Below, piece by piece: positions 2,044-62,760 of a stretch of DNA of 64,000 nt. Source of the DNA: a virus; the IMG/VR virus record IMGVR_UViG_3300047560_001714, positions 1 through 64,000 of that record. The stretch is one strand, 5' to 3'. The position numbers and the translations under genes were made by a program. The notes beneath the pieces were generated by a model. It was not told the origin of the DNA, searched no databases, and saw nothing but the letters and a program-made list of their open reading frames with translations. Within the stretch, counting starts at the first letter, position 1. Each line of letters begins with the position of its first letter.

Positions 2044-2592
2044 ATGAATTTAACAGGTAATTTAATAATAGCACCACCAGCGGTCAAAGGAAACTTCTGG
2101 TATAAAACAGTTATAATGATAACTGAACATCATACTAATGGTAGTATTGGACTCATGCTTAATAAAAAAAGCAATATGTCCGTCGCCGAACTTGGTGATA
2201 AGTTAGGATACGATATAGATATCGATGATTTTGTATATGTGGGTGGTCCTATAAGTAAACAAAGTCTTTCACTACTACATAGCAATGAATGGCGATGCAA
2301 AAACACTATGAGAATAAATGATCAATTTTCTATTAGTTCAGCTGATGATATGCTTCCTAGATTTGCTAAGTATGATATGCCAAATCAATGGCGAATGTTT
2401 GTTGGTGTATGTGGGTGGGCACCTTGTCAACTAGAAAATGAAATTAAAGGTGTTGAACCATATATTCATGACAATAGTTGGTGTATCTCAACTGGTAGTT
2501 CTGATCTAGTATATAACTCAGATGGTAAAGAACAATGGTGGAATGCACTAGAACAATCTAGTATGGAATTCGCACGTGGGATTCTATCATGA
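2044..2592 (+). CDS. YqgE/AlgH family protein (UPF0301, DUF179)
   Basis: A 182-residue protein closely resembling bacterial YqgE/AlgH: MNLTGNLIIAPP at the start, ITEHHTNGSIGLMLNK and VYVGGPISKQ. The family's biochemical role is not settled, though AlgH was first described as a regulator. I chose 2044 over an in-frame ATG at 2017 for two reasons: family members begin at this Met, and a TAAATA late-promoter core lies exactly 5 nt before it (2033-2038), so the mRNA would be leaderless. From 2017 the gene would overlap the transglycosylase gene by 14 nt. A host-like gene on a phage; the benefit is unknown. Confidence 0.75.
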   Translation: MNLTGNLIIAPPAVKGNFWYKTVIMITEHHTNGSIGLMLNKKSNMSVAELGDKLGYDIDIDDFVYVGGPISKQSLSLLHSNEWRCKNTMRINDQFSISSADDMLPRFAKYDMPNQWRMFVGVCGWAPCQLENEIKGVEPYIHDNSWCISTGSSDLVYNSDGKEQWWNALEQSSMEFARGILS

Positions 2593-3026
2593 AGAAATGG
2601 CTATGGAAAATTGGTGGTTTTGTTTTATTAGGGATTGCATACTTAGGTGTAATAACACCAGGACTGCCATTTAGTCCATTCCTAGTTGGCGCGGCGGTAT
2701 GTTTTAGTAAAGGTAGCCCAAAAATGCATGCTTGGATTTATAATCATAAGCTATTTGGACCTTTTCTTACTAACTGGGTTGACCATAAGGTATTTCCTAC
2801 TAAAATGAAATATACTATGCTGATTGTAATGGGGTCATCTCTTTTAATACTATGGCTTAAAACATACAACGTTAAAGCACTATTAGGTAGTGGTATCTTT
2901 ATGGCATTGGTAGCAATATGGGCATGGCGATATCCTGGTAGCCTCGATGAATATGAATATAGAAAATCTAACGGAAAACGCATAGGATGGTTTAAAGTTT
3001 CGTTAAATAACGATATACAACAATAA
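2589..3026 (+). CDS. DUF454 (YbaN-like) inner-membrane protein
   Basis: A 145-residue protein with several hydrophobic segments (residues ~8-38 and ~75-115). The signature is GVITPGLPFSPFLVGAAVCFSKGSPKMHAWIYNH, split here across the first membrane segment and the SSPRFHAWL-like motif of Escherichia coli YbaN. The family has no assigned function, although it often lies near heme or iron genes in bacteria. It overlaps YqgE by 4 nt (ATGA). It is unusual cargo for a phage; a role in membrane remodelling or lysis timing would be a guess. Confidence 0.7.
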   Translation: MKKWLWKIGGFVLLGIAYLGVITPGLPFSPFLVGAAVCFSKGSPKMHAWIYNHKLFGPFLTNWVDHKVFPTKMKYTMLIVMGSSLLILWLKTYNVKALLGSGIFMALVAIWAWRYPGSLDEYEYRKSNGKRIGWFKVSLNNDIQQ

Positions 3027-48828: not shown

Positions 48829-49362
48829 ATGAGTTTAAAAGAAATCACAAAAGAATTGCACACAGAAGCCGAGAAATCGGCTTTTGCTAAACTATTGTTA
48901 AGTGGTAATATTACCAAAGAAAAGTATGTGCAATACTTAACAGAAATGCAACCAATTTATCAGTTGATTGAAAAACACGCATCCGCACAAGGGATATTAG
49001 ACACCTTGCCTGGTATTAAACGTGCTAATGCTATTTTAGAAGATATCAGAGAGCTGTCAGATGTTGTACCATCCTCTGTGTTAAAACCAACCGTTGATTA
49101 TCTTATATACTTAGATAAATTATGTGAGGACGTGGCGACTAAACACCTAATTAAAGCTCATCTATATGTCAGACATATGGGCGACTTATTTGGTGGTCAA
49201 TTCATTGCAAAAAAAGTTCCGGGTTCTGGTAAGTTTTACCAATTTGATAACCCAGATGAACTGAAAGTTGCCATTAGAGAGTTGCTCACAGATGATCTAG
49301 GGGATGAAGCGAAAGTTGCATTCCAATGGGCAATAAAAATTATGGATGCGCTCGGTGAGTAA
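48829..49362 (+). CDS. Heme oxygenase
   Basis: A 177-residue heme oxygenase. His11 in TKELHTEAEKSAF is the proximal heme ligand, and YVRHMGDLFGGQFIAKK (~112-128) is the distal helix with the flexible Gly residues and Asp119, as in bacterial enzymes. It opens heme to biliverdin, CO and iron using reduced ferredoxin or a similar donor. It is somewhat shorter than typical bacterial forms (~200). It starts right after the clpS stop with a GAGGG ribosome site, and its end overlaps the bilin reductase gene by 17 nt, so the two are co-expressed as a pathway. Confidence 0.92.
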   Translation: MSLKEITKELHTEAEKSAFAKLLLSGNITKEKYVQYLTEMQPIYQLIEKHASAQGILDTLPGIKRANAILEDIRELSDVVPSSVLKPTVDYLIYLDKLCEDVATKHLIKAHLYVRHMGDLFGGQFIAKKVPGSGKFYQFDNPDELKVAIRELLTDDLGDEAKVAFQWAIKIMDALGE

Positions 49363-50032
49363 CGTTTGGGATACCTTAGTATCAATTCAAATACATTTTG
49401 AAAAAATGATTGGTACTAACGGTATAGAAATCAACGAAAAAGGCATGGATAGATTCAACCAACCTGGTTGGATTAACCGTGTCTGGACCAGTGAAGCATT
49501 TCGTAGAGCGCACATTGATGTTGTGGATGCTAGAGAGAGTAAAGGGTTGTGGATGATGCATTGTTGTATTTTTCCACACACTCATAATGCGGCACCAATA
49601 TTTGGGTTTGACGTTGTTGCAGGTCGAAATAAAATCACTGGCTGTTTTTATGATTTTAGCCCATCTGGTTCATCAAATCACGAAATGGCGGAATGGTTTG
49701 ATGAAAGTGTTAAAGATCTTGAGTGGAAAAAGACACGCGAATTACCACCTTGGGCTGAACGTATTTTTAGTCATAATATGATTGCGGCAAGTAATGTTCA
49801 ATCAGATGATGAATTAAAACAGATCCACGAAATGGCAACATCTGGTATTGATTTCTATCTACAACAAGTTGGTACGTATAACAATACCACAAAAGATGTT
49901 ACCGCGTTGCATAACTTTTATGCACAGAACCAAAAACAAAATCCACATACCCCAAAAGTTATGGCAGCACTTGGGTTAGATGAGGATGATGTTAAGGTGT
50001 TCATCAATGACTGTCTGTTCCCAGAACTCTAA
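49346..50032 (+). CDS. Ferredoxin-dependent bilin reductase (PcyA/PcyX-like)
   Basis: A 228-residue protein. FRRAHIDVVDARESKGLWMM, HCCIFPHTHNAAPIFGFDVV (Asp89 in the position of the catalytic Asp) and AGRNKITGCFYDFSPSG align with PcyA-type enzymes (LQILHMVLFP, PIFGCDLVGGRGQISAA). LPPWAERIFS matches PEWGDIFS. PcyA reduces biliverdin to phycocyanobilin. The phage variant PcyX, described from metagenomic phages thought to infect alphaproteobacteria, makes phycoerythrobilin, and context makes PcyX likely here. Which bilin is made cannot be read from sequence. The start could be GTG 49355. It ends at a terminator. Confidence 0.88.
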   Translation: MRSVSNVWDTLVSIQIHFEKMIGTNGIEINEKGMDRFNQPGWINRVWTSEAFRRAHIDVVDARESKGLWMMHCCIFPHTHNAAPIFGFDVVAGRNKITGCFYDFSPSGSSNHEMAEWFDESVKDLEWKKTRELPPWAERIFSHNMIAASNVQSDDELKQIHEMATSGIDFYLQQVGTYNNTTKDVTALHNFYAQNQKQNPHTPKVMAALGLDEDDVKVFINDCLFPEL

Positions 50033-50092: not shown

Positions 50093-50572
50093 ATGACTAA
50101 AATTATAGGTTTATTACTTATACTTGTTTGTTCGCAAGCACTATCCGCCGAATTGGTACATCAATTTAATAGTCCATCATTTAGTGGTATTGGTTACAGT
50201 GCGCACGTACTTACTATAAACCAATTAGAAAATCAAGCGGCAGATAAAAATAAAGCATTAGCTGATTCTATAAAAGCAAAGGCGGAGGCGGCAGCATTGA
50301 ATACCCCCGAAGCTAAATTCTTGGCTAACTTAGAATCTAGAATATACTCACAACTCGCAAAACAATTAACTGATACTATGTTTAGCGAGGGAAATACTTG
50401 TAATATCCCAGGAACAGTTTGTGGCTCAATACCAGATTTGGGCGGAAACCATGTTACATGGAGTTTGGGCGCAGGGACTGATCAAGGAATGATAATCATT
50501 GATATTGTCAATAACTCTAACCCAGCGCAAACAACGTCGATGAAGGTACCATCCGGTTCATTTTACTTTTAA
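50093..50572 (+). CDS. csgF: Curli assembly protein CsgF-like
   Basis: A 159-residue protein with a signal peptide (MTKIIGLLLILVCSQALSAE). The mature N-terminus ELVHQFNSPSFSGIGYSAHV follows the CsgF pattern ELVY.P.NPSFGG; CsgF inserts this segment into the CsgG pore. A helical middle (NKALADSIKAKAEAAALN) and a beta C-terminus follow. It sits immediately before csgG (2 nt gap). In bacteria CsgF couples curlin secretion to surface nucleation. Expression probably starts from a late promoter inside the upstream hairpin. Confidence 0.85.
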   Translation: MTKIIGLLLILVCSQALSAELVHQFNSPSFSGIGYSAHVLTINQLENQAADKNKALADSIKAKAEAAALNTPEAKFLANLESRIYSQLAKQLTDTMFSEGNTCNIPGTVCGSIPDLGGNHVTWSLGAGTDQGMIIIDIVNNSNPAQTTSMKVPSGSFYF

Positions 50573-50574
50573 CT

Positions 50575-51405
50575 ATGAAAAAAATTATACTATTATTCGT
50601 TATATTAATATTACAAGGGTGTGCAACAACAAGTGAATTGCATAAATTAATTACTGGCGATCAATTCGATGATCCAGTGATTGAAAAGCAATCTTATCTT
50701 ATCAAAGACGAAAGTTGGATTGCACCACCAACAAATGGGGCAATTCCAATTGCAGTGTATGGGTTTGTGGATAAAACTGGGCAACGTAAAGCTGTCCCTA
50801 ATATCGCATCCTTAAGTTCGGCTGTTACACAAGGTGCAGAAAGTTATTTGATTAAGTCGTTACAAGACGTGGGTGAATCAAAATGGTTCACTGTGGTTGA
50901 ACGAGTTGGTCTGGATAATTTAATTAAAGAACGACAAATGATTCGTCAGACTAGAGAACAATTCCAAGGCCGTGATGCACAACAATTACCAGCAATGACA
51001 TTTGCGGGAATAATTGCCGAAGGTGCTATCGTCGGTTATGATTCTAACACAACCACTGGTGGTGCTGGCGTCAGATTATTTGGAATCGGTGGTGAAACTC
51101 AGTATCAAAGCGACACAGTCACTGTTAGTTTAAGAACAGTATCAGTTACGTCTGGTGAAATATTAACATCAGTGTTAGTAACAAAAACAGTATTGAGTTA
51201 CGTGGATAAAGCTGGTGTATTAAAATTTGCTGCATCAGGTACATCAGCAATAGAGGCCGAGGTCGGTGGAAGTATAAATGAAAGTATAAACAGAGCAACC
51301 AATAAAGCGATCCAAGCTGCAGTACTCGATACAATTAAAGAAGGGGCGCGTAAAGGTCACTGGGCAATTCAATCTGTTCCAAATCCTTACGTATTAAACC
51401 ATTAA
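50575..51405 (+). CDS. csgG: Curli secretion pore lipoprotein CsgG
   Basis: A 276-residue protein with a lipoprotein signal and lipobox LQGC at residues ~13-16 (ILILQGCATTSEL), so it is anchored in the outer membrane after acylation. CsgG motifs: IPIAVYGFVDKTGQRK, VVERVGLDNLIKERQMIRQT, FAGIIAEGAIVGYDSNTTTG, VTVSLRTVSVTSGEIL. CsgG forms a nine-fold channel for curlin secretion. Length matches the bacterial protein (277). In a phage it could serve surface-fibre export or make the outer membrane leaky. Confidence 0.92.
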   Translation: MKKIILLFVILILQGCATTSELHKLITGDQFDDPVIEKQSYLIKDESWIAPPTNGAIPIAVYGFVDKTGQRKAVPNIASLSSAVTQGAESYLIKSLQDVGESKWFTVVERVGLDNLIKERQMIRQTREQFQGRDAQQLPAMTFAGIIAEGAIVGYDSNTTTGGAGVRLFGIGGETQYQSDTVTVSLRTVSVTSGEILTSVLVTKTVLSYVDKAGVLKFAASGTSAIEAEVGGSINESINRATNKAIQAAVLDTIKEGARKGHWAIQSVPNPYVLNH

Positions 51406-51441
51406 GGAGCATTGGCAAATAATATTGTTCAATGATAATAA

Positions 51442-52221
51442 ATGAAAACATTAACATTATTTCTACTTTCGATTTTATTTTTTTCTAACGCGTATGGCGC
51501 GGCAGCTGGTGAAAATAAAGTATATATAGAGCAAGCTGGTAACACCAATACCATTACAATAGACCAAATAGGTGGTGGTAATATGGTCGGAGGTACAACC
51601 TCAACAACAATAGCCGTGAATGGCGCAGGGGTGACAACTATCACACCTGCTAGTCCTAGTTCATCTAACTACGCGTTGATAACTGGGAATACAAATAGTT
51701 TAACATTAAACCACTTAGGTGATACTAACTGGGCTCAATATGTCATTACTGGGAGTAATAATATCTACTCTAATAAAATTACTGGGAATAGTAATATATC
51801 AATTCTAACAATCGGAAAAGTATTACCAACTCCTATGGCAAATCTTAGAAATAATATAAATGAAGAAATAATTGGTAATACTAATTATACAATCCAATCT
51901 ATTTCCAATGATGATATTATTAGTAACTTAAAAATAACCGGCGATCAAAACCAAGTTACCACAGACTTAGGTTCTAGTTTTGGAAAAGTAAATACAGTTA
52001 TCACAGGCGGAAATAATATTCTATTCAATACTCAAGCTGGTGTTGCTACTGGTCATGATCTTACTCAAGATATTCTAGGCAGTTTTAACTCAATATCAAC
52101 TCAACAGTTGGGTGTAAATGATTCCATAATAGATATTAAAGTTAATGGCGATCATAATACGATTACAGTTCATTCAAGTGATAGCACTATTGCGTCACCA
52201 TTAATTGCAACACCACGATAA
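51442..52221 (+). CDS. Secreted curlin-repeat-like protein 1
   Basis: A 259-residue protein with a signal peptide (MKTLTLFLLSILFFSNAYGA). The mature part holds degenerate curlin-like strands: VYIEQAGNTNTITIDQIGGG, then units of the form GNTN/GSNN/GDQN about every 20-25 residues. This is the Q-x-G-x-x-N ladder of CsgA/CsgB in a looser form. It probably forms a beta-solenoid exported by CsgG. No Shine-Dalgarno is close to the ATG. Its stop overlaps the FecR-domain gene start by one base. Confidence 0.7.
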   Translation: MKTLTLFLLSILFFSNAYGAAAGENKVYIEQAGNTNTITIDQIGGGNMVGGTTSTTIAVNGAGVTTITPASPSSSNYALITGNTNSLTLNHLGDTNWAQYVITGSNNIYSNKITGNSNISILTIGKVLPTPMANLRNNINEEIIGNTNYTIQSISNDDIISNLKITGDQNQVTTDLGSSFGKVNTVITGGNNILFNTQAGVATGHDLTQDILGSFNSISTQQLGVNDSIIDIKVNGDHNTITVHSSDSTIASPLIATPR

Positions 52222-53306
52222 TGTACATTATAGCCTTATTATTTTTGTTTATTTCTAATTCATACGCTGGTATTGGTACCGTTGTTGATGCAACTGGTAC
52301 CAATTGCACAATAGAGCGTAGTTCTAAAAAAATCTCTGGTGAAAAAGGGGCGATAGTTGAAAGTATGGATACCTATATTACTGGTAGTTGTGTAAGTAAT
52401 ATAACTTTTGACGATGGTACCAAAGTTAAAGTAAACGAAAATAGTAAGCTATTCATAGATGAATTTGTTTACGATCCAAAACAATCAGATGCAGGTAAAC
52501 TAGCTATCAAAGTCGGAATGGGTACTGTTCGTTATGCATCTGGTCAAATAGCTAAAAACAATCCACAAAAAGTTGATATAAAAACACCGACGGCAGCAGT
52601 TGCAGTGCGTGGTACTGACTTTACTATGACTGTCGATGAGATTGGTCAAAGCTTAGTGGTACTTGTTCCAAGTTGTAAAGATGAAAAAGATGTAAAAAAG
52701 TATGAACTACAAGAAAACACTTGCCAAGTTGGTAGAATAATAGTTTCAAATGGTATGGGTTCTGTTGAACTATCCGAGGCATACCAAGCTACTTTTGTTA
52801 ACAGCAATGTGGTGCAACCAACACCACCAGTTGTAATCAATATGACTGAGGGGCAAATTGGGAATAATCTTATCATATTGAAACCAGCGGAAATTCAAAA
52901 AGCGGTTAAAGAAAATACCAGAACCCAAAAAGACTCCGAGAATGATGCAGCTGAGGATGAAACCGCCAGACGCTCAACTAGTATGGCACTGAAATCCGCC
53001 GAACTAAATGATGCAAAAATATCCTCATCTAAAAAACTACAAATTGATAAATCTTGTAACCCATCCTCATCAGTATGTGTGGCTTGGGAAAATAAAGATG
53101 CCGAGGGGCAAGCAAAAGGAATTGGGGTAGCGTATAGATTCCAACCGGATGAACATTATACTGAAATAAAGACACAAGGTTATACCTCTAATACCTCAAT
53201 ATCAATAACACAAAACGATGAATTCGCATCGACCGTCATAGGGGATGGTGCCGCCGGTGGAAACATCATTACTATCAAACAACAAAATGGAGTGTTAAAT
53301 AAATGA
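52221..53306 (+). CDS. Secreted FecR-domain protein
   Basis: A 361-residue protein with a signal peptide (MYIIALLFLFISNSYAG). Residues ~20-150 form a FecR-like beta domain (GEKGAIVESMDTYITG, FDDGTKVKVNENSKLFIDEF, KVGMGTVRYASGQ, KTPTAAVAVRGTDF). The region around 270-361 contains an acidic/charged segment and ends NDEFASTVIGDGAAGGNI, again curlin-like in composition. FecR domains in exported proteins often accompany adhesins. Its place between two curlin-like genes, with one- and four-base overlaps, suggests it belongs to the fibre system, perhaps as an anchor or nucleator. Confidence 0.75.
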   Translation: MYIIALLFLFISNSYAGIGTVVDATGTNCTIERSSKKISGEKGAIVESMDTYITGSCVSNITFDDGTKVKVNENSKLFIDEFVYDPKQSDAGKLAIKVGMGTVRYASGQIAKNNPQKVDIKTPTAAVAVRGTDFTMTVDEIGQSLVVLVPSCKDEKDVKKYELQENTCQVGRIIVSNGMGSVELSEAYQATFVNSNVVQPTPPVVINMTEGQIGNNLIILKPAEIQKAVKENTRTQKDSENDAAEDETARRSTSMALKSAELNDAKISSSKKLQIDKSCNPSSSVCVAWENKDAEGQAKGIGVAYRFQPDEHYTEIKTQGYTSNTSISITQNDEFASTVIGDGAAGGNIITIKQQNGVLNK

Positions 53307-53764
53307 GACATTTGTTACTTTTTCTTTTATGCTCTATATGTTACGCTGATAATTTAACATCAGTTAACCAAATTGGTAATAGCAACGATATTGAAATTAA
53401 CCAAATAGGTGATGTAAATAATATATCGTATTCTGGTAATGGTTCCTTTAATACCGTCAATGTTGAACAAATCGGTAATCAAAAAACTGCAAACTTAACT
53501 GTTATTAATAATAACAATATCATAGACGTATCACAAAGTGGTACTGGGATTGATTCGGCAACAATAGCGGTTAGTGGTGGACTTAAAAATATATCAGTAA
53601 CACAAGAAGGTTCCGGGTCACATTCAGCAACCATAAACTTATCTGGAACACCTATTACATTTGATCTAACTCAATCTGGAGTTAATAATCAAACATTTTC
53701 AATCACGGCAAATTGTGCCCTAGTGGGCGGTTGCGCCGCAGTTCAAGTCATTCAAAATCAATAA
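53303..53764 (+). CDS. Secreted curlin-repeat protein 2 (CsgA/CsgB-like)
   Basis: A 153-residue protein with a short signal peptide (MRHLLLFLLCSICYAD). It has clear curlin repeats: VNQIGNSNDIEINQIGDVNN, VNVEQIGNQ, IDVSQSGTGIDSATIAV, ISVTQEGSGSHSATINL, FDLTQSGVNNQTF. Each has the S/V-x-Q-x-G-x-x-N pattern of amyloid-forming CsgA/CsgB units. Two Cys lie near the end (ANCALVGGCAA). It is the best candidate for the amyloid subunit of the cluster. It overlaps the FecR-domain gene by ATGA and ends near a late promoter. Confidence 0.82.
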   Translation: MRHLLLFLLCSICYADNLTSVNQIGNSNDIEINQIGDVNNISYSGNGSFNTVNVEQIGNQKTANLTVINNNNIIDVSQSGTGIDSATIAVSGGLKNISVTQEGSGSHSATINLSGTPITFDLTQSGVNNQTFSITANCALVGGCAAVQVIQNQ

Positions 53765-53766
53765 TC

Positions 53767-53775
53767 GATAAATAC
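53767..53775 (+). promoter_or_regulatory. Late promoter core before pqqA
   Basis: GATAAATAC, 27 nt before the ATG at 53803. An AAGGAGG ribosome site (53791-53797), the best match to the consensus in the region, lies 5 nt before the ATG. Confidence 0.55.
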
Positions 53776-53802
53776 AATAGCTAGTTCAGCAAGGAGGCAG
53801 CT

Positions 53803-53877
53803 ATGAAGTGGACCACACCAACATTCGTTGATATTCGATTAGGGTTTGAAGTAACACTGTATATCTATAACCGCTAA
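53803..53877 (+). CDS. pqqA: PQQ precursor peptide PqqA
   Basis: A 24-residue peptide: MKWTTPTFVDIRLGF followed by EVTLYIYNR. It matches bacterial PqqA (Klebsiella type [23 protein letters not shown]) at most positions. This includes the invariant Glu16 and Tyr20 of the E-V-T-x-Y motif that PqqE cross-links to build pyrroloquinoline quinone. It has an ideal ribosome site and a late promoter. No pqqB-E genes are in the window, so host enzymes would have to process it. Chance resemblance over 24 residues with this pattern is very unlikely. Confidence 0.9.
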   Translation: MKWTTPTFVDIRLGFEVTLYIYNR

Positions 53878-53920
53878 TCTTTTGTGCTGGATGTTTCTAG
53901 CACCAATAATAAGGATAGCA

Positions 53921-56317: not shown

Positions 56318-57319
56318 ATGATTAAGAAAATACTACTCAGCCATTGGACAGCACTAATAACACTAACCTTAGTTGTGCTAGTTCGCGTAATAGATCCATC
56401 ATTTGTTGAAAGTATCCGTTTAAGATACTTCGATACATTGATAACAGCTAAAGCACCCACAGAAAACAATATTATTTCTGTTAATATAGACGAGGATGCT
56501 CTTGATAAGTATGGCCAATGGCCATTTAGTCGAGATATATACGGTTCTATAATCGAGGATTTATACCAGCGAAATGCTGGGTTAGTGGTATTCAATGTCT
56601 TAATGCCAGAAAAGGATAGACTAGGTGGTGATGCGGCATTGGCAAAAACAATCGCTAATAATCCCGTTATCATTCCAAGCGTTGCATCTATAAAATCAAA
56701 AAATACACCAAAAAACCCAGGGGCATCTGTCATTGGTGCGGATTATGCTGATATGATAGTCCAGTTTCCAGGTATAATTTCATCGATTGATATTATCAGT
56801 GAACATGCGGCTGGTGTTGGTATCATCAATACATTACCGGAAATAGATGGCGTCAATAGACGTTTACCTATGTTAGTAACCGCCAAACATACGTTGTATC
56901 CATCACTAAGTATGGAGGTTCTTCGTGTGGTGGCCGGTGATCCATCGTTTCAAGTCAAACTGAATAACTTTGGTGTTGAAAAAATGCGTATACCAGCGTT
57001 TGGTGTAATATCAACCGATTCGTTAAGTCGTGTGTGGATTGATTGGAGTCAACATAATCAAAGTATTAGTTTATCACAGCTACCAAATGATTTTGGTGGT
57101 GCGATAGTAATAGTCGGACCAACCGCCGCTGGTATTAGTAACCCAATCTCTACTCCAAAAGGTCCAATCTTCCCAAATGATATTCAAGCGGCGATGATTG
57201 GTACTATGATGAATAAAGTAACCATCAACAGACCGGACTATTCGGACGGTGCTGAAATTTTAGTTGGTGCCGTTTGTGGTATCTTGTTAATTATAGGTTC
57301 GTTATGGCGGAAGAGATAG
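56318..57319 (+). CDS. CHASE2 sensor half of a split adenylate cyclase
   Basis: A 333-residue protein. An N-terminal membrane helix (~8-26) is followed by an extracytoplasmic CHASE2 domain (NIISVNIDEDALDKYGQWPF, SRDIYGSIIEDLYQRNAGLV, GDAALAKTIANN, GVGIINTLPEIDGVNRRLPM). One C-terminal membrane helix (EILVGAVCGILLIIGSLW) and WRKR-stop follow. In bacteria CHASE2 is normally followed in the same protein by three membrane helices and a cyclase or kinase. Here the protein ends after the first helix, and the remaining helices plus cyclase are encoded after a homing endonuclease gene. It is likely to pair with that protein. Confidence 0.82.
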   Translation: MIKKILLSHWTALITLTLVVLVRVIDPSFVESIRLRYFDTLITAKAPTENNIISVNIDEDALDKYGQWPFSRDIYGSIIEDLYQRNAGLVVFNVLMPEKDRLGGDAALAKTIANNPVIIPSVASIKSKNTPKNPGASVIGADYADMIVQFPGIISSIDIISEHAAGVGIINTLPEIDGVNRRLPMLVTAKHTLYPSLSMEVLRVVAGDPSFQVKLNNFGVEKMRIPAFGVISTDSLSRVWIDWSQHNQSISLSQLPNDFGGAIVIVGPTAAGISNPISTPKGPIFPNDIQAAMIGTMMNKVTINRPDYSDGAEILVGAVCGILLIIGSLWRKR

Positions 57320-57336
57320 TAAATCCACTAACATTT

Positions 57337-57345
57337 GATAAATAA
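57337..57345 (+). promoter_or_regulatory. Late promoter core giving a leaderless start
   Basis: GATAAATAA; TAAATA ends 5 nt before the ATG at 57350 (spacer ATATT). No ribosome site for the homing endonuclease is seen. Confidence 0.55.
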
Positions 57346-57349
57346 TATT

Positions 57350-57922
57350 ATGAGAATATATATTATTACAAATTTATCAAACAATCATCGATATGTCGGA
57401 ATGACTACTAAAACATTAGCAGAACGGTGGGCGCAACATAAAGCGGATGCTAAGAGAAATAAACCTTGGATTTTACATAAAGCATTGCGAAAATATGGGT
57501 ATGAGAATTTCAAAATAGAATTATTAGAGGAATGTAATGCTAATTCACTGACAGAATTAGGACTTATTGAAACTAATTACATAACAACACTAAAACCAGA
57601 ATATAATATGACATCTGGTGGTGAAGGGCATAGTGGTATTTCAGCAAAAGGTGAAAAGAACGGGATGTTTAATAAAAAGCACAGTGAAGAAACAAAAGAA
57701 AAAATAAGTATCAACCGAAAAGGAAAAGGAGGACAAGTTGGGGAATTAAATCCTCGATATGGTAAACCTGGTACATTTCTCGGATGTCAGCATTCCGATG
57801 AAACTAAATCAAAAATGCGAAAACCTAAATCAATACCTAGACAACGTGTTTCTTGTGAATTCTGTGGTAGAGAAATAGCCATAAATGCAATCGGGCAGCA
57901 TAAGAGAGCACACCATGAATAA
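57350..57922 (+). CDS. GIY-YIG homing endonuclease
   Basis: A 190-residue protein. GIY-YIG domain: IYIITNLSNNHRYVGMTTKT, the catalytic Arg in LAERWAQHK, and Glu in LIETNYITTLKPEYN. Two NUMOD3 DNA-binding motifs follow (GMFNKKHSEETKEKISINRK and RYGKPGTFLGCQHSDETKSK), then a C2H2-like finger (CEFCGREIAINAIGQHKRAH). It is a free-standing mobile endonuclease like T4 Seg/Mob proteins. It sits exactly between the two halves of a CHASE2-cyclase gene and overlaps the cyclase start by 8 nt. The start at 57350 is leaderless after a late-promoter core. Confidence 0.9.
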   Translation: MRIYIITNLSNNHRYVGMTTKTLAERWAQHKADAKRNKPWILHKALRKYGYENFKIELLEECNANSLTELGLIETNYITTLKPEYNMTSGGEGHSGISAKGEKNGMFNKKHSEETKEKISINRKGKGGQVGELNPRYGKPGTFLGCQHSDETKSKMRKPKSIPRQRVSCEFCGREIAINAIGQHKRAHHE

Positions 57923-58982
57923 ACATCTAAGTTATATATTACCACTATTTTTTATTATTATAATATCATTTTTCAGTTTTCATGAATACCAAAATGAACA
58001 CATTCTGTTCGATGTAACATTTCCAGTTATAACAATTGTTCTAGTTACACTACATATTAACACTGTTCGATTTATTACAGAATTAACCCTTAAATTACAA
58101 ATAAAAAAACAATTTGGCACATACCTAAGTGCAGCATTAGTTGAAAAATTGCAGAAAAACCCAGATTTACTCCATTTAGGGGGCGACAGTAGAGAATTAT
58201 CCATTCTCTTTTCCGACGTAAGAGGATTCACATCTATCTCTGAACACTATGGCGAAGATGTCCAAGGGCTTACAAAGATTATGAATAGATATATGACAGC
58301 AATGACAGCAGAAATATTAACAAATGATGGCACACTTGACAAATATATTGGTGATGCTAAAATGGCTTTCTGGAATGCTCCACTTGATGATCCACATCAT
58401 GCAAAAAATGCTGTAAAAACCGCATTACAAATGTTAAAGAACTTGGAGAAGTTTAATAATGAAATCGAAAAAGAAGGAGTTCCAGCTTTCGGGATGGGCC
58501 TTGGTGTTAACACTGCCACTGTGGTTGTTGGCAATATGGGTAGTGATCAGCGTTTCGATTATACCTGCCTTGGTGATGGGGTTAACCTCGCGTCACGGCT
58601 TGAAGGACAATCAAAATCGTATGGGGTTAAAATCGTTCTGGGTCCGAAAACAGCCGACTATGTCAAAGACGAATACTTAGTTCTTGAACTAGACCTACTT
58701 GCAGTTAAAGGTAAAAAACAAGGTGTCACAATCTTTACGGTCTTAGGTGAGAATGATCCCAAATATACAACGCATGATATAAAAATGCATAATAGAATGC
58801 TTGAGTTATATCGCAAACAACGTTGGGATGAAGTTATTCATGCTTGCAATCCATTAAAAAAAGCTTTCAGTGGCGAAATGAAAAAGTATTATGAAATGAT
58901 GCAAGAACGTGCTACTGAATATAGCCAAACTAATAAATTTATTGAAAACTGGGATGGCGTGTACGTTGCCACAAGCAAATAG
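57915..58982 (+). CDS. Class III adenylate cyclase half (two membrane helices plus cyclase)
   Basis: A 355-residue protein that starts at 57915 inside the end of the endonuclease gene. Residues ~5-22 and ~34-50 are membrane helices, followed by a linker (LQIKKQFGTYLSAALVEKLQ, as in CHASE2 cyclases). The cyclase domain runs ~90-275: Asp101 (ILFSDVRGFTSIS) and Asp147 (LDKYIGDAKMAFWNAP) bind the metals, Lys143 and Asp215 (FDYTCLGDG) select adenine, and Asn224 and Arg228 (VNLASRLEG) stabilise the transition state. All are present, so it should make cAMP. A ~75-residue helical tail follows. Confidence 0.88.
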   Translation: MNKHLSYILPLFFIIIISFFSFHEYQNEHILFDVTFPVITIVLVTLHINTVRFITELTLKLQIKKQFGTYLSAALVEKLQKNPDLLHLGGDSRELSILFSDVRGFTSISEHYGEDVQGLTKIMNRYMTAMTAEILTNDGTLDKYIGDAKMAFWNAPLDDPHHAKNAVKTALQMLKNLEKFNNEIEKEGVPAFGMGLGVNTATVVVGNMGSDQRFDYTCLGDGVNLASRLEGQSKSYGVKIVLGPKTADYVKDEYLVLELDLLAVKGKKQGVTIFTVLGENDPKYTTHDIKMHNRMLELYRKQRWDEVIHACNPLKKAFSGEMKKYYEMMQERATEYSQTNKFIENWDGVYVATSK

Positions 58983-62311: not shown

Positions 62312-62707
62312 AACTTAGCAACAATAAGCATATTAGATTTATTAGTGTGCTTATTATTGTTGTAATTCCTTCAAAGTGAAGGCATTCAAGACGGGGGTTC
62401 GACTCCCCCCAGTTCCACCATAAAACACATTAGAGGTATCAGAGTGGGGCCATAGCCATAAACTTCCTGCCCCCCCCTAAAAGGGAAGTGCTAGTGTGTT
62501 TTATAATGGGGCTGTCATGGTTTCGATTGGGTGAGATAATGGAGACGGCAACAGGTGAGGTGACTGTCCTAAACAGCGCAAAACAAGTAATCGCAAACGA
62601 TTCAAATTTCGAATTCTATACATTAGATAACATCGATTTAGATGTTATGGCTGCTTAATAACCAGCCGATTCCGGGGCATGTATGCCCTGTTACCTAAAA
62701 TACAACT
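62312..62707 (+). ncRNA. ssrA: Circularly permuted (two-piece) tmRNA
   Basis: Acceptor piece first: a T-arm with stem GGGGG/CCCCC and loop TTCGACT (62393-62409), then CAGTTCC, discriminator A and CCA (62410-62420). After an ~87-nt linker comes the coding piece, which begins GGGGCTG (62508-62514), then TCATGGTTTCGATTGGG, the tmRNA D-region signature. GGGGCTG pairs with CAGTTCC as a 7-bp acceptor stem. The tag frame begins GCA at 62593 (AND, then SNFEFYTLDN, IDLDVMAA) and ends in TAATAA at 62656-62661. Linker ends can pair (TAAAACACATTAG with CTAGTGTGTTTTA), as in permuted precursors. Piece boundaries before 62368 and after 62690 are estimated. It rescues stalled ribosomes and tags the protein for proteolysis. 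Confidence 0.9.
62421..62507 (+). other. Intervening segment of the tmRNA precursor
   Basis: About 87 nt between CCA of the acceptor piece and GGGG of the coding piece, presumably cut out. Its ends pair over ~13 bp (62421-62433 with 62492-62505), bringing the acceptor-stem halves together. It contains a C8 run and an AACTTCC/GGAAGT pair. Confidence 0.6.
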
Positions 62708-62733
62708 AAGCTGCCTTCGGGCAGCTTTTTTTA
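62708..62733 (+). terminator. Rho-independent terminator of the tmRNA
   Basis: AAGCTGCC and GGCAGCTT form a stem with a TTCG tetraloop, followed by T residues. Confidence 0.9.
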
Positions 62734-62760
62734 CATCAAATATCATAGGTGTCAGACAAT

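What the first reader, a model, noticed from the sequence alone, without database searches (positions are those of the whole stretch)
53803..53877. A pqqA gene of 24 codons on a phage
The peptide keeps nearly the full PqqA sequence including Glu16 and Tyr20, which are joined to form PQQ, and has a late promoter and an ideal ribosome site. PqqA supply can limit PQQ production, so the phage may boost a host quinone cofactor used by periplasmic alcohol and sugar dehydrogenases. Such short genes are routinely missed by gene callers.
Basis: partly seen in the sequence, partly recalled or inferred. Interest (0 to 1): 0.8.

Follow-up and report, generated by a model that had tools for sequence, protein, structure and literature searches.

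The report
Hidden PQQ-precursor gene in methanotroph phages

Summary
Window 53803-53877 encodes MKWTTPTFVDIRLGFEVTLYIYNR. It scores 41-45 bits against PF08042 and TIGR02107, twice the curated cut-offs, and keeps Glu16 and Tyr20. It has a Shine-Dalgarno site, a T4-late-type GATAAATA box and a downstream hairpin. The gene is under purifying selection and is syntenic in two related phages; four more carry it at a second site.

The 188-kb record also encodes PmoC (402 bits, gammaproteobacterial methanotroph type), so this is a pmoC-phage. In the methanotroph family that matches its PmoC, 60/61 genomes have pqqA and 58/61 have pqqE. The phage has no pqqB-E and no methanol dehydrogenase.

The gene is not a one-off. 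It lies unannotated in nine Methylophilales phage isolates from several lineages and in well over 200 IMG/VR contigs. No PqqB-E homologue was found within 1.9 Mb around 233 of them.

Best explanation: PqqA is the only pathway component consumed with every PQQ made. Late in infection the phage supplies this substrate to the host's PqqBCDE, keeping methanol dehydrogenase charged. That function is inferred, not shown. Prior art: one Lake Baikal phage contig (2020) and an unspecific gene list (2026). New here are the link to pmoC-phages, the presence in cultured methylophages, and the breadth.

The parts
53803..53877 (+). pqqA, 24 codons: PQQ precursor peptide MKWTTPTFVDIRLGFEVTLYIYNR (Glu16, Tyr20 kept)
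   Evidence: PF08042 41.4 bits, TIGR02107 45.2 bits; only match in the 188-kb record; pN/pS 0.17-0.28 against relatives
53791..53797 (+). Shine-Dalgarno site AAGGAGG, 5 nt before the start codon
   Evidence: sequence; SD-like motif within 20 nt upstream in 108/108 viral pqqA genes tested
53767..53774 (+). T4-late-type promoter box GATAAATA
   Evidence: [GA]ATAAATA kept right after the upstream curlin-like gene in all six relatives compared, with or without pqqA; motif enriched 20-70 nt before gene starts; exact TATAAATA before pqqA in a T4-like relative of another clade
53884..53903 (+). hairpin just after pqqA (attenuator or transcript 3' end)
   Evidence: fold, z -2.4 for the 70 nt after the stop; hairpins follow viral pqqA in 54% of 108 loci against 10% of control ORFs
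53303..53764 (+). curlin-repeat protein, upstream neighbour in slot I
   Evidence: PF07012 22.6 bits; syntenic in L135 and L146
53921..54793 (+). RimK-family ATP-grasp ligase, downstream neighbour; judged not functionally tied to pqqA
   Evidence: TIGR00768 230.6 bits; present at the same place in relatives lacking pqqA and away from pqqA in slot II phages
50093..53764 (+). curli-type block: CsgF-like, CsgG, curlin-like, FecR-like, curlin-like
   Evidence: PF10614, PF03783 164.8 bits, PF07012, PF04773

Best explanation
The gene is a real phage-borne pqqA. It acts as an auxiliary metabolic gene that supplies substrate rather than enzyme. One PqqA peptide is destroyed for each PQQ molecule made, while PqqB-E are reusable, so PqqA is the component a phage can usefully add alone. 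Transcribed from a T4-type late promoter, the peptide would be bound by host PqqD, cross-linked between Glu16 and Tyr20 by host PqqE, and finished by host protease, PqqB and PqqC. The PQQ would keep the host's periplasmic methanol dehydrogenase active while host gene expression is shut down. The same phage carries pmoC, so it touches the first step of methane oxidation (methane to methanol, particulate methane monooxygenase) and the cofactor of the second (methanol to formaldehyde). Shown: the gene, its family membership, selection on the peptide, synteny, the pmoC gene, absence of pqqB-E, and presence of the pathway in the candidate host family. Inferred: expression, processing by host enzymes, effect on PQQ and on phage yield.
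For: Family match at twice the cut-offs. Purifying selection: pN/pS 0.17-0.28 against relatives found independently of pqqA, and 0.27 over codons outside the search pattern among 100 distinct viral alleles. Glu and Tyr invariant when both were left open in the search: 119/119 distinct contexts and 44/44 contigs. PmoC in the same record, 402 bits, closest to the C subunit of PDB 6cxh/7s4l at about 500 bits against about 335 for 3chx/4phz, and 84% identical to the PmoC of one methanotroph genome, G282. In the family of G282, 60/61 genomes have PqqA and 58/61 have PqqE, nearly all with one pqqA copy. Host peptides read MKWETPSYTDLRFGFEVTMYIYNR and share the MKW...YIYNR ends with the window peptide. 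No pqqB-E in the record or near 233 other viral pqqA genes, against PqqB beside 28/30 host pqqA loci. Repeated association with C1 and monooxygenase genes: pmoC in G000, G013 and G021, with a partial copy at a contig end in G012; a methanol dehydrogenase in G314; AmoC directly beside pqqA in four contigs. In 50,697 phage records three different PqqA queries recover the same nine methylophage isolates plus ctXG6705; the only other hits are two records that are host chromosome pieces. Literature: PQQ is needed in quantity by methanol dehydrogenase and PqqA is convertible to PQQ by cell extract; a PQQ-producing methylotroph has five pqqA copies, three of them alone in the genome (PMC9851590); pqqAB overexpression raises PQQ by 29% in Acetobacter pasteurianus (PMC7936290).
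Against: No transcript, peptide or PQQ measurement. Four relatives with the same slot lack pqqA and 24 of 30 related records show none, though most are fragments, so the gene is optional. Whole-operon overexpression raises PQQ far more than pqqAB alone (eightfold against 29%), so PqqA need not be the only bottleneck. Host identity rests on PmoC and peptide signature, not on CRISPR or culture.
Confidence: 0.76

Rival explanations
1. The phage peptide is a decoy: it binds PqqD/PqqE, competes with host PqqA and lowers PQQ synthesis, redirecting metabolism.
For: Only the peptide is carried, without enzymes; a substrate mimic could inhibit. Window residues differ from host consensus at 7 of 24 positions.
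Against: The two reacting residues are invariant in every allele tested, including searches that left them open, and the peptide stays close to host sequences. An inhibitor would be expected to lose Glu or Tyr in some lineages. Association with pmoC, amoC and methanol dehydrogenase points to support of the pathway.
Confidence: 0.08
2. The peptide is made into something else, for example glutamylated by the adjacent RimK-family ligase or exported by the CsgG pore, rather than into PQQ.
For: RimK-like ligase is the next gene downstream and a CsgG/curlin block lies upstream.
Against: RimK and curli genes occupy the same places in relatives without pqqA, and in slot II phages pqqA lies beside baseplate genes, away from both. 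The cultured methylophages other than Melnitz have pqqA without a detectable CsgG.
Confidence: 0.05
3. The gene is a passenger copied from a host, neutral or of marginal effect.
For: Patchy presence among close relatives; no functional data.
Against: Strong selection on a 24-codon frame, occurrence in unrelated phage lineages, a recurring layout of ribosome site, pqqA and hairpin, and two insertion sites in one phage group.
Confidence: 0.08
4. The records are host chromosome pieces or misassemblies, not phage.
For: Records named Acinetobacter phage MD-2021a are host contigs (L003 shows full pqqABCDE).
Against: The gene lies inside complete genomes of cultured phages, between phage structural genes in L268, and in conserved phage synteny here.
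Confidence: 0.01

Closest known systems
Lake Baikal phage VP_266 (Coutinho et al. 2020, PMC7678222)
   Same: Phage contig with pqqA, predicted Methylophilaceae host, with methanol dehydrogenase; same proposed role
   Different: T4-like phage of methanol oxidisers; no pmoC reported; pqqA reported as a single case. G314/L056 here has the same pair, pqqA plus methanol dehydrogenase
pmoC-phages (Chen et al. 2020, PMC7674155)
   Same: Large freshwater myoviruses with stand-alone pmoC of host type; the window's record fits in size, tRNA number and gene content
   Different: [quoted passage not shown] a 24-aa gene would be below usual gene-caller limits
Host PqqA of methanotrophs (TIGR02107 / PF08042)
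   Same: 17 of 24 residues, Glu16, Tyr20, length, MKW start and YIYNR end
   Different: No pqqB-E next to it; phage promoter and hairpin
pqqA of cultured methylophages (Melnitz, Venkman, P19250A, MEP301, MEP401/402)
   Same: Lone pqqA with ribosome site, no pqqB-E nearby in the annotation; unannotated, or covered by a spurious opposite-strand ORF
   Different: Peptide of Methylophilales type (MWT...VMNK; Melnitz MKWTKP...IMTR); phages of other lineages

Membership tests
PqqA (TIGR02107, PF08042) | score above curated cut-off over the whole model | tested here: met
   45.2 vs 20 bits and 41.4 vs 21.1 bits, full model length
PqqA (TIGR02107, PF08042) | Glu and Tyr four residues apart in E-V-T-x-Y | tested here: met
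   Glu16 and Tyr20; numbering as in PMC10906245
PqqA (TIGR02107, PF08042) | translated and under selection as a peptide | tested here: met
   pN/pS 0.17-0.28; ribosome site. Translation itself was not measured
PqqA (TIGR02107, PF08042) | cross-linked by PqqE with PqqD and converted to PQQ | not testable with these tools
   needs biochemistry
PqqA (TIGR02107, PF08042) | linked to pqqB-E (usual in bacteria, not required) | tested here: not met
   none in the record; the candidate host supplies them
pmoC-phage | phage genome with a stand-alone, host-like pmoC | tested here: met
   PF04896 402 bits at G000:96972-97688, full length, 84% identical to a methanotroph PmoC. pmoA and pmoB were not searched for
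pmoC-phage | methanotroph host demonstrated | tested here: inconclusive
   PmoC type and PqqA signature point to the gammaproteobacterial methanotroph family of G282; tmRNA matches the Rfam betaproteobacterial model
viral auxiliary metabolic gene | host-derived metabolic gene that changes host metabolism during infection | tested here: inconclusive
   origin and conservation met; effect on metabolism not testable here

The most novel reading that the evidence does not exclude
Feeding a consumed precursor peptide into a host cofactor pathway is a general strategy of phages of C1 oxidisers (methanotrophs, methylotrophs and possibly ammonia oxidisers). It would be carried by thousands of phage genomes from unrelated lineages, paired in some with pmoC, amoC or methanol dehydrogenase, and overlooked because the gene is 23-24 codons long.
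Probability: 0.55. Interest if true: 0.8.

Novelty: new member of a known kind. Interest (0 to 1): 0.66.

Why it matters
Methanotrophs are the main biological sink for methane, and pmoC-phages are thought to change how fast they burn it. Finding pqqA beside pmoC in one phage genome suggests these phages act on two consecutive steps of methane oxidation. The gene is present, unannotated, in cultured phage-host pairs (Melnitz and Venkman on OM43 strain H5P1), so the idea can be tested now. It also shows that very small genes can hide a common auxiliary function from standard surveys.

Tried and rejected
A 24-aa query was too short for the search for related loci, so degenerate DNA patterns and neighbour genes were used instead. 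RimK as a bait found no relatives; CsgG worked. DnaK gave no host signal (at most about 74% identity, similar to many genomes). Melnitz structural proteins gave no useful match in the record apart from short baseplate-wedge stretches. Functional pairing with RimK or curli genes was considered and rejected on synteny. Contamination was considered: true for the Acinetobacter records, not for the rest. A window-wide excess of [TG]ATAAATA was not seen (10 against 12 expected); only its placement before genes is enriched. A first de-duplicated count of the second open pattern gave 26; a recount over all listed contigs gave 44/44 with Glu and Tyr. Some selection estimates are affected by the search pattern; the ratio outside the pattern is given.

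Full report
WHAT IS THERE. The ORF at 53803-53877 reads MKWTTPTFVDIRLGFEVTLYIYNR. It matches the two curated PqqA models over their full length at about twice the cut-off and is the only PqqA match in the 187,935-bp virus record that holds the window. AAGGAGG lies 5 nt before the ATG. GATAAATA at 53767-53774 is the T4-late type of box; [TGA]ATAAATAC occurs six times in the window, five of them 20-70 nt before a gene start. A hairpin (53884-53903) follows the stop. The neighbours are a curlin-repeat protein upstream and a RimK-family ATP-grasp ligase downstream.

RELATED PHAGES. CsgG as bait brought 30 related IMG/VR records; whole-record scans found PqqA in six. In G001 (L135) and G012 (L146) pqqA sits in the same slot, curlin-like | pqqA | RimK. 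In G007, G013, G015 and G021 it sits elsewhere, after a small baseplate-type gene. Four relatives with the same curlin-RimK junction lack pqqA but keep the [GA]ATAAATA box. So pqqA is an optional cassette that lies at two sites in this phage group. Between the window and these relatives pN/pS is 0.17-0.28; the relatives were found without using pqqA, so this is unbiased evidence that the short frame is read as protein.

THE PHAGE AND ITS HOST. The record carries pmoC (PF04896, 402 bits, G000:96972-97688), as do G013, G021, G009 and, partially at contig ends, G002 and G012. It has 17 tRNAs, a permuted tmRNA, a T4-type clamp loader and a phage DNA polymerase. It is therefore a pmoC-phage of the kind described by Chen et al. 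2020 (PMC7674155). Its PmoC scores about 500 bits against the C subunit of 6cxh/7s4l and about 335 against 3chx/4phz; my reading of these entries as gammaproteobacterial and alphaproteobacterial methanotrophs is from memory. Among 274 genomes of the class it is 84% identical over its full length to the PmoC of G282. In 61 genomes of that family, 60 have PqqA and 58 have PqqE above cut-off. Their peptide, MKWETPSYTDLRFGFEVTMYIYNR, shares the MKW start and YIYNR end with the window's (17 of 24 residues); the phage G007 peptide matches it at 22 of 24. The record has no PQQ alcohol dehydrogenase and no pqqB-E by tblastn.

HOW WIDESPREAD. In 50,697 phage records, three different PqqA queries recover the same set: four Melnitz isolates, Venkman, P19250A, MEP301, MEP401 and MEP402 (all Methylophilales phages), the metagenomic ctXG6705, and two Acinetobacter records, of which the one read is a host chromosome piece with complete pqqABCDE. 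An alphaproteobacterial-type query found only the Melnitz isolates, weakly. In six representative records all matches pass the PF08042 cut-off. In those whose annotation was read, the gene is unannotated or covered by an opposite-strand ORF. The papers on these phages that I could read do not report it. A second returned more than 100 further ones: 107 of 113 fit the strict peptide form, and the other six are longer or cut N-terminal variants of it. From the overlap of these scans with a complete scan of 44 I estimate roughly 2,500-3,000 such contigs; this is an extrapolation that assumes scan order is unrelated to content. Across 233 of these loci (1.9 Mb) there is no PqqB-E homologue, whereas 28 of 30 bacterial pqqA loci have PqqB nearby.

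SIGNS OF FUNCTION. With the Glu and Tyr codons left open, 119/119 distinct contexts and 44/44 contigs still have both. Among 100 alleles pN/pS is 0.17 overall and 0.27 outside the pattern. All 108 tested viral genes have a Shine-Dalgarno-like motif, and 54% have a significant hairpin just downstream against 10% of control ORFs; related sequences are not independent, so the p-value there is only indicative. pqqA keeps company with genes of the same metabolism: pmoC here, a methanol dehydrogenase in G314, and in four contigs an AmoC gene closest to solved ammonia monooxygenase subunits. There AmoC sits directly before a TATAAATA box and pqqA, between a T4-type major head protein and a tail-tube protein.

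MECHANISM. PqqE links Glu16 to Tyr20 of PqqA on PqqD (PMC10906245); the rest of the peptide is discarded. PqqA is thus consumed one for one while the enzymes turn over (established pathway knowledge). A PQQ-producing methylotroph has five pqqA copies, three of them solitary (PMC9851590), and extra pqqAB raises PQQ modestly in Acetobacter (PMC7936290). A phage that keeps C1 oxidation going after host shut-off would gain from supplying PqqA alone. Sequence, selection, synteny, pmoC linkage and host pathway are shown; expression, processing and benefit are inferred. A decoy role is less likely because the reacting residues are never lost.

KNOWN OR NEW. Phage pqqA was reported once, on Baikal contig VP_266 together with methanol dehydrogenase (PMC7678222), and viral pqqA, pqqD and pqqE are listed in a 2026 reservoir study as phosphorus genes (PMC13188868). 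I found no report in the papers searched linking it to pmoC-phages or to the cultured methylophages, or describing it as a recurrent lone precursor gene. The search covered open-licence papers only, main text without supplements. I therefore file it as a new member of a known kind, with a breadth that was not recognised.

Noticed in passing
L268:5007-8429 (also L259, L308, L314): T4-like phage with an ammonia-monooxygenase-type AmoC (534 bits to PDB 9leg_C) directly beside pqqA, between major head and tail-tube genes, with a TATAAATA box before pqqA. Probably a phage of an ammonia oxidiser; why it would need PQQ is unclear.
   Followed up: partly
window 56318-58982: CHASE2 domain and cyclase domain are separate ORFs flanking a GIY-YIG-like ORF (57335-57922, recognised by eye), whereas relatives L176 and L177 have one 681-682-aa CHASE2-cyclase gene; looks like a homing-endonuclease insertion splitting a signalling gene.
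   Followed up: partly
window 48829-50032: Heme oxygenase followed by a ferredoxin-dependent bilin reductase (PF05996, 65 bits) in a phage of a presumed methanotroph; conserved in relatives. Bilin synthesis in such a host is unexplained.
   Followed up: no
window 50093-53764: Curli-type block with CsgF, CsgG and two curlin-repeat proteins plus a FecR-like protein; unlike Melnitz, which is reported to lack csgA/csgB, this phage group has curlin-like genes.
   Followed up: partly
L167:2264-13315 (G000 about 104264-115315): Cluster of ORFs with CxxPW motifs, two of which match the Radical_SAM family and one also SPASM; not PqqE by tblastn with an Acinetobacter PqqE.
   Followed up: partly
L003 (CAKLQF020000010.1) and CAKLQH020000055.1: Records named Acinetobacter phage MD-2021a: L003 is a host chromosome piece (complete pqqABCDE, ppk and fur); the second record looks the same by its pqqA match but was not read.
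   Followed up: partly
L002:4967-5062 and L008:2067-2195: Annotated opposite-strand 'hypothetical proteins' (QZI94433.1, UOF77531.1) cover the real pqqA genes of Melnitz and ctXG6705.
   Followed up: yes
L165:2034-2177 and L165:12017-13540: Rfam Polynucleobacter-1 RNA and a tryptophan-halogenase-like gene in the tRNA-rich part of the same phage.
   Followed up: no
window 62328-62749: Permuted tmRNA matching the Rfam betaproteobacterial model, although PmoC and PqqA point to a gammaproteobacterial methanotroph host.
   Followed up: no
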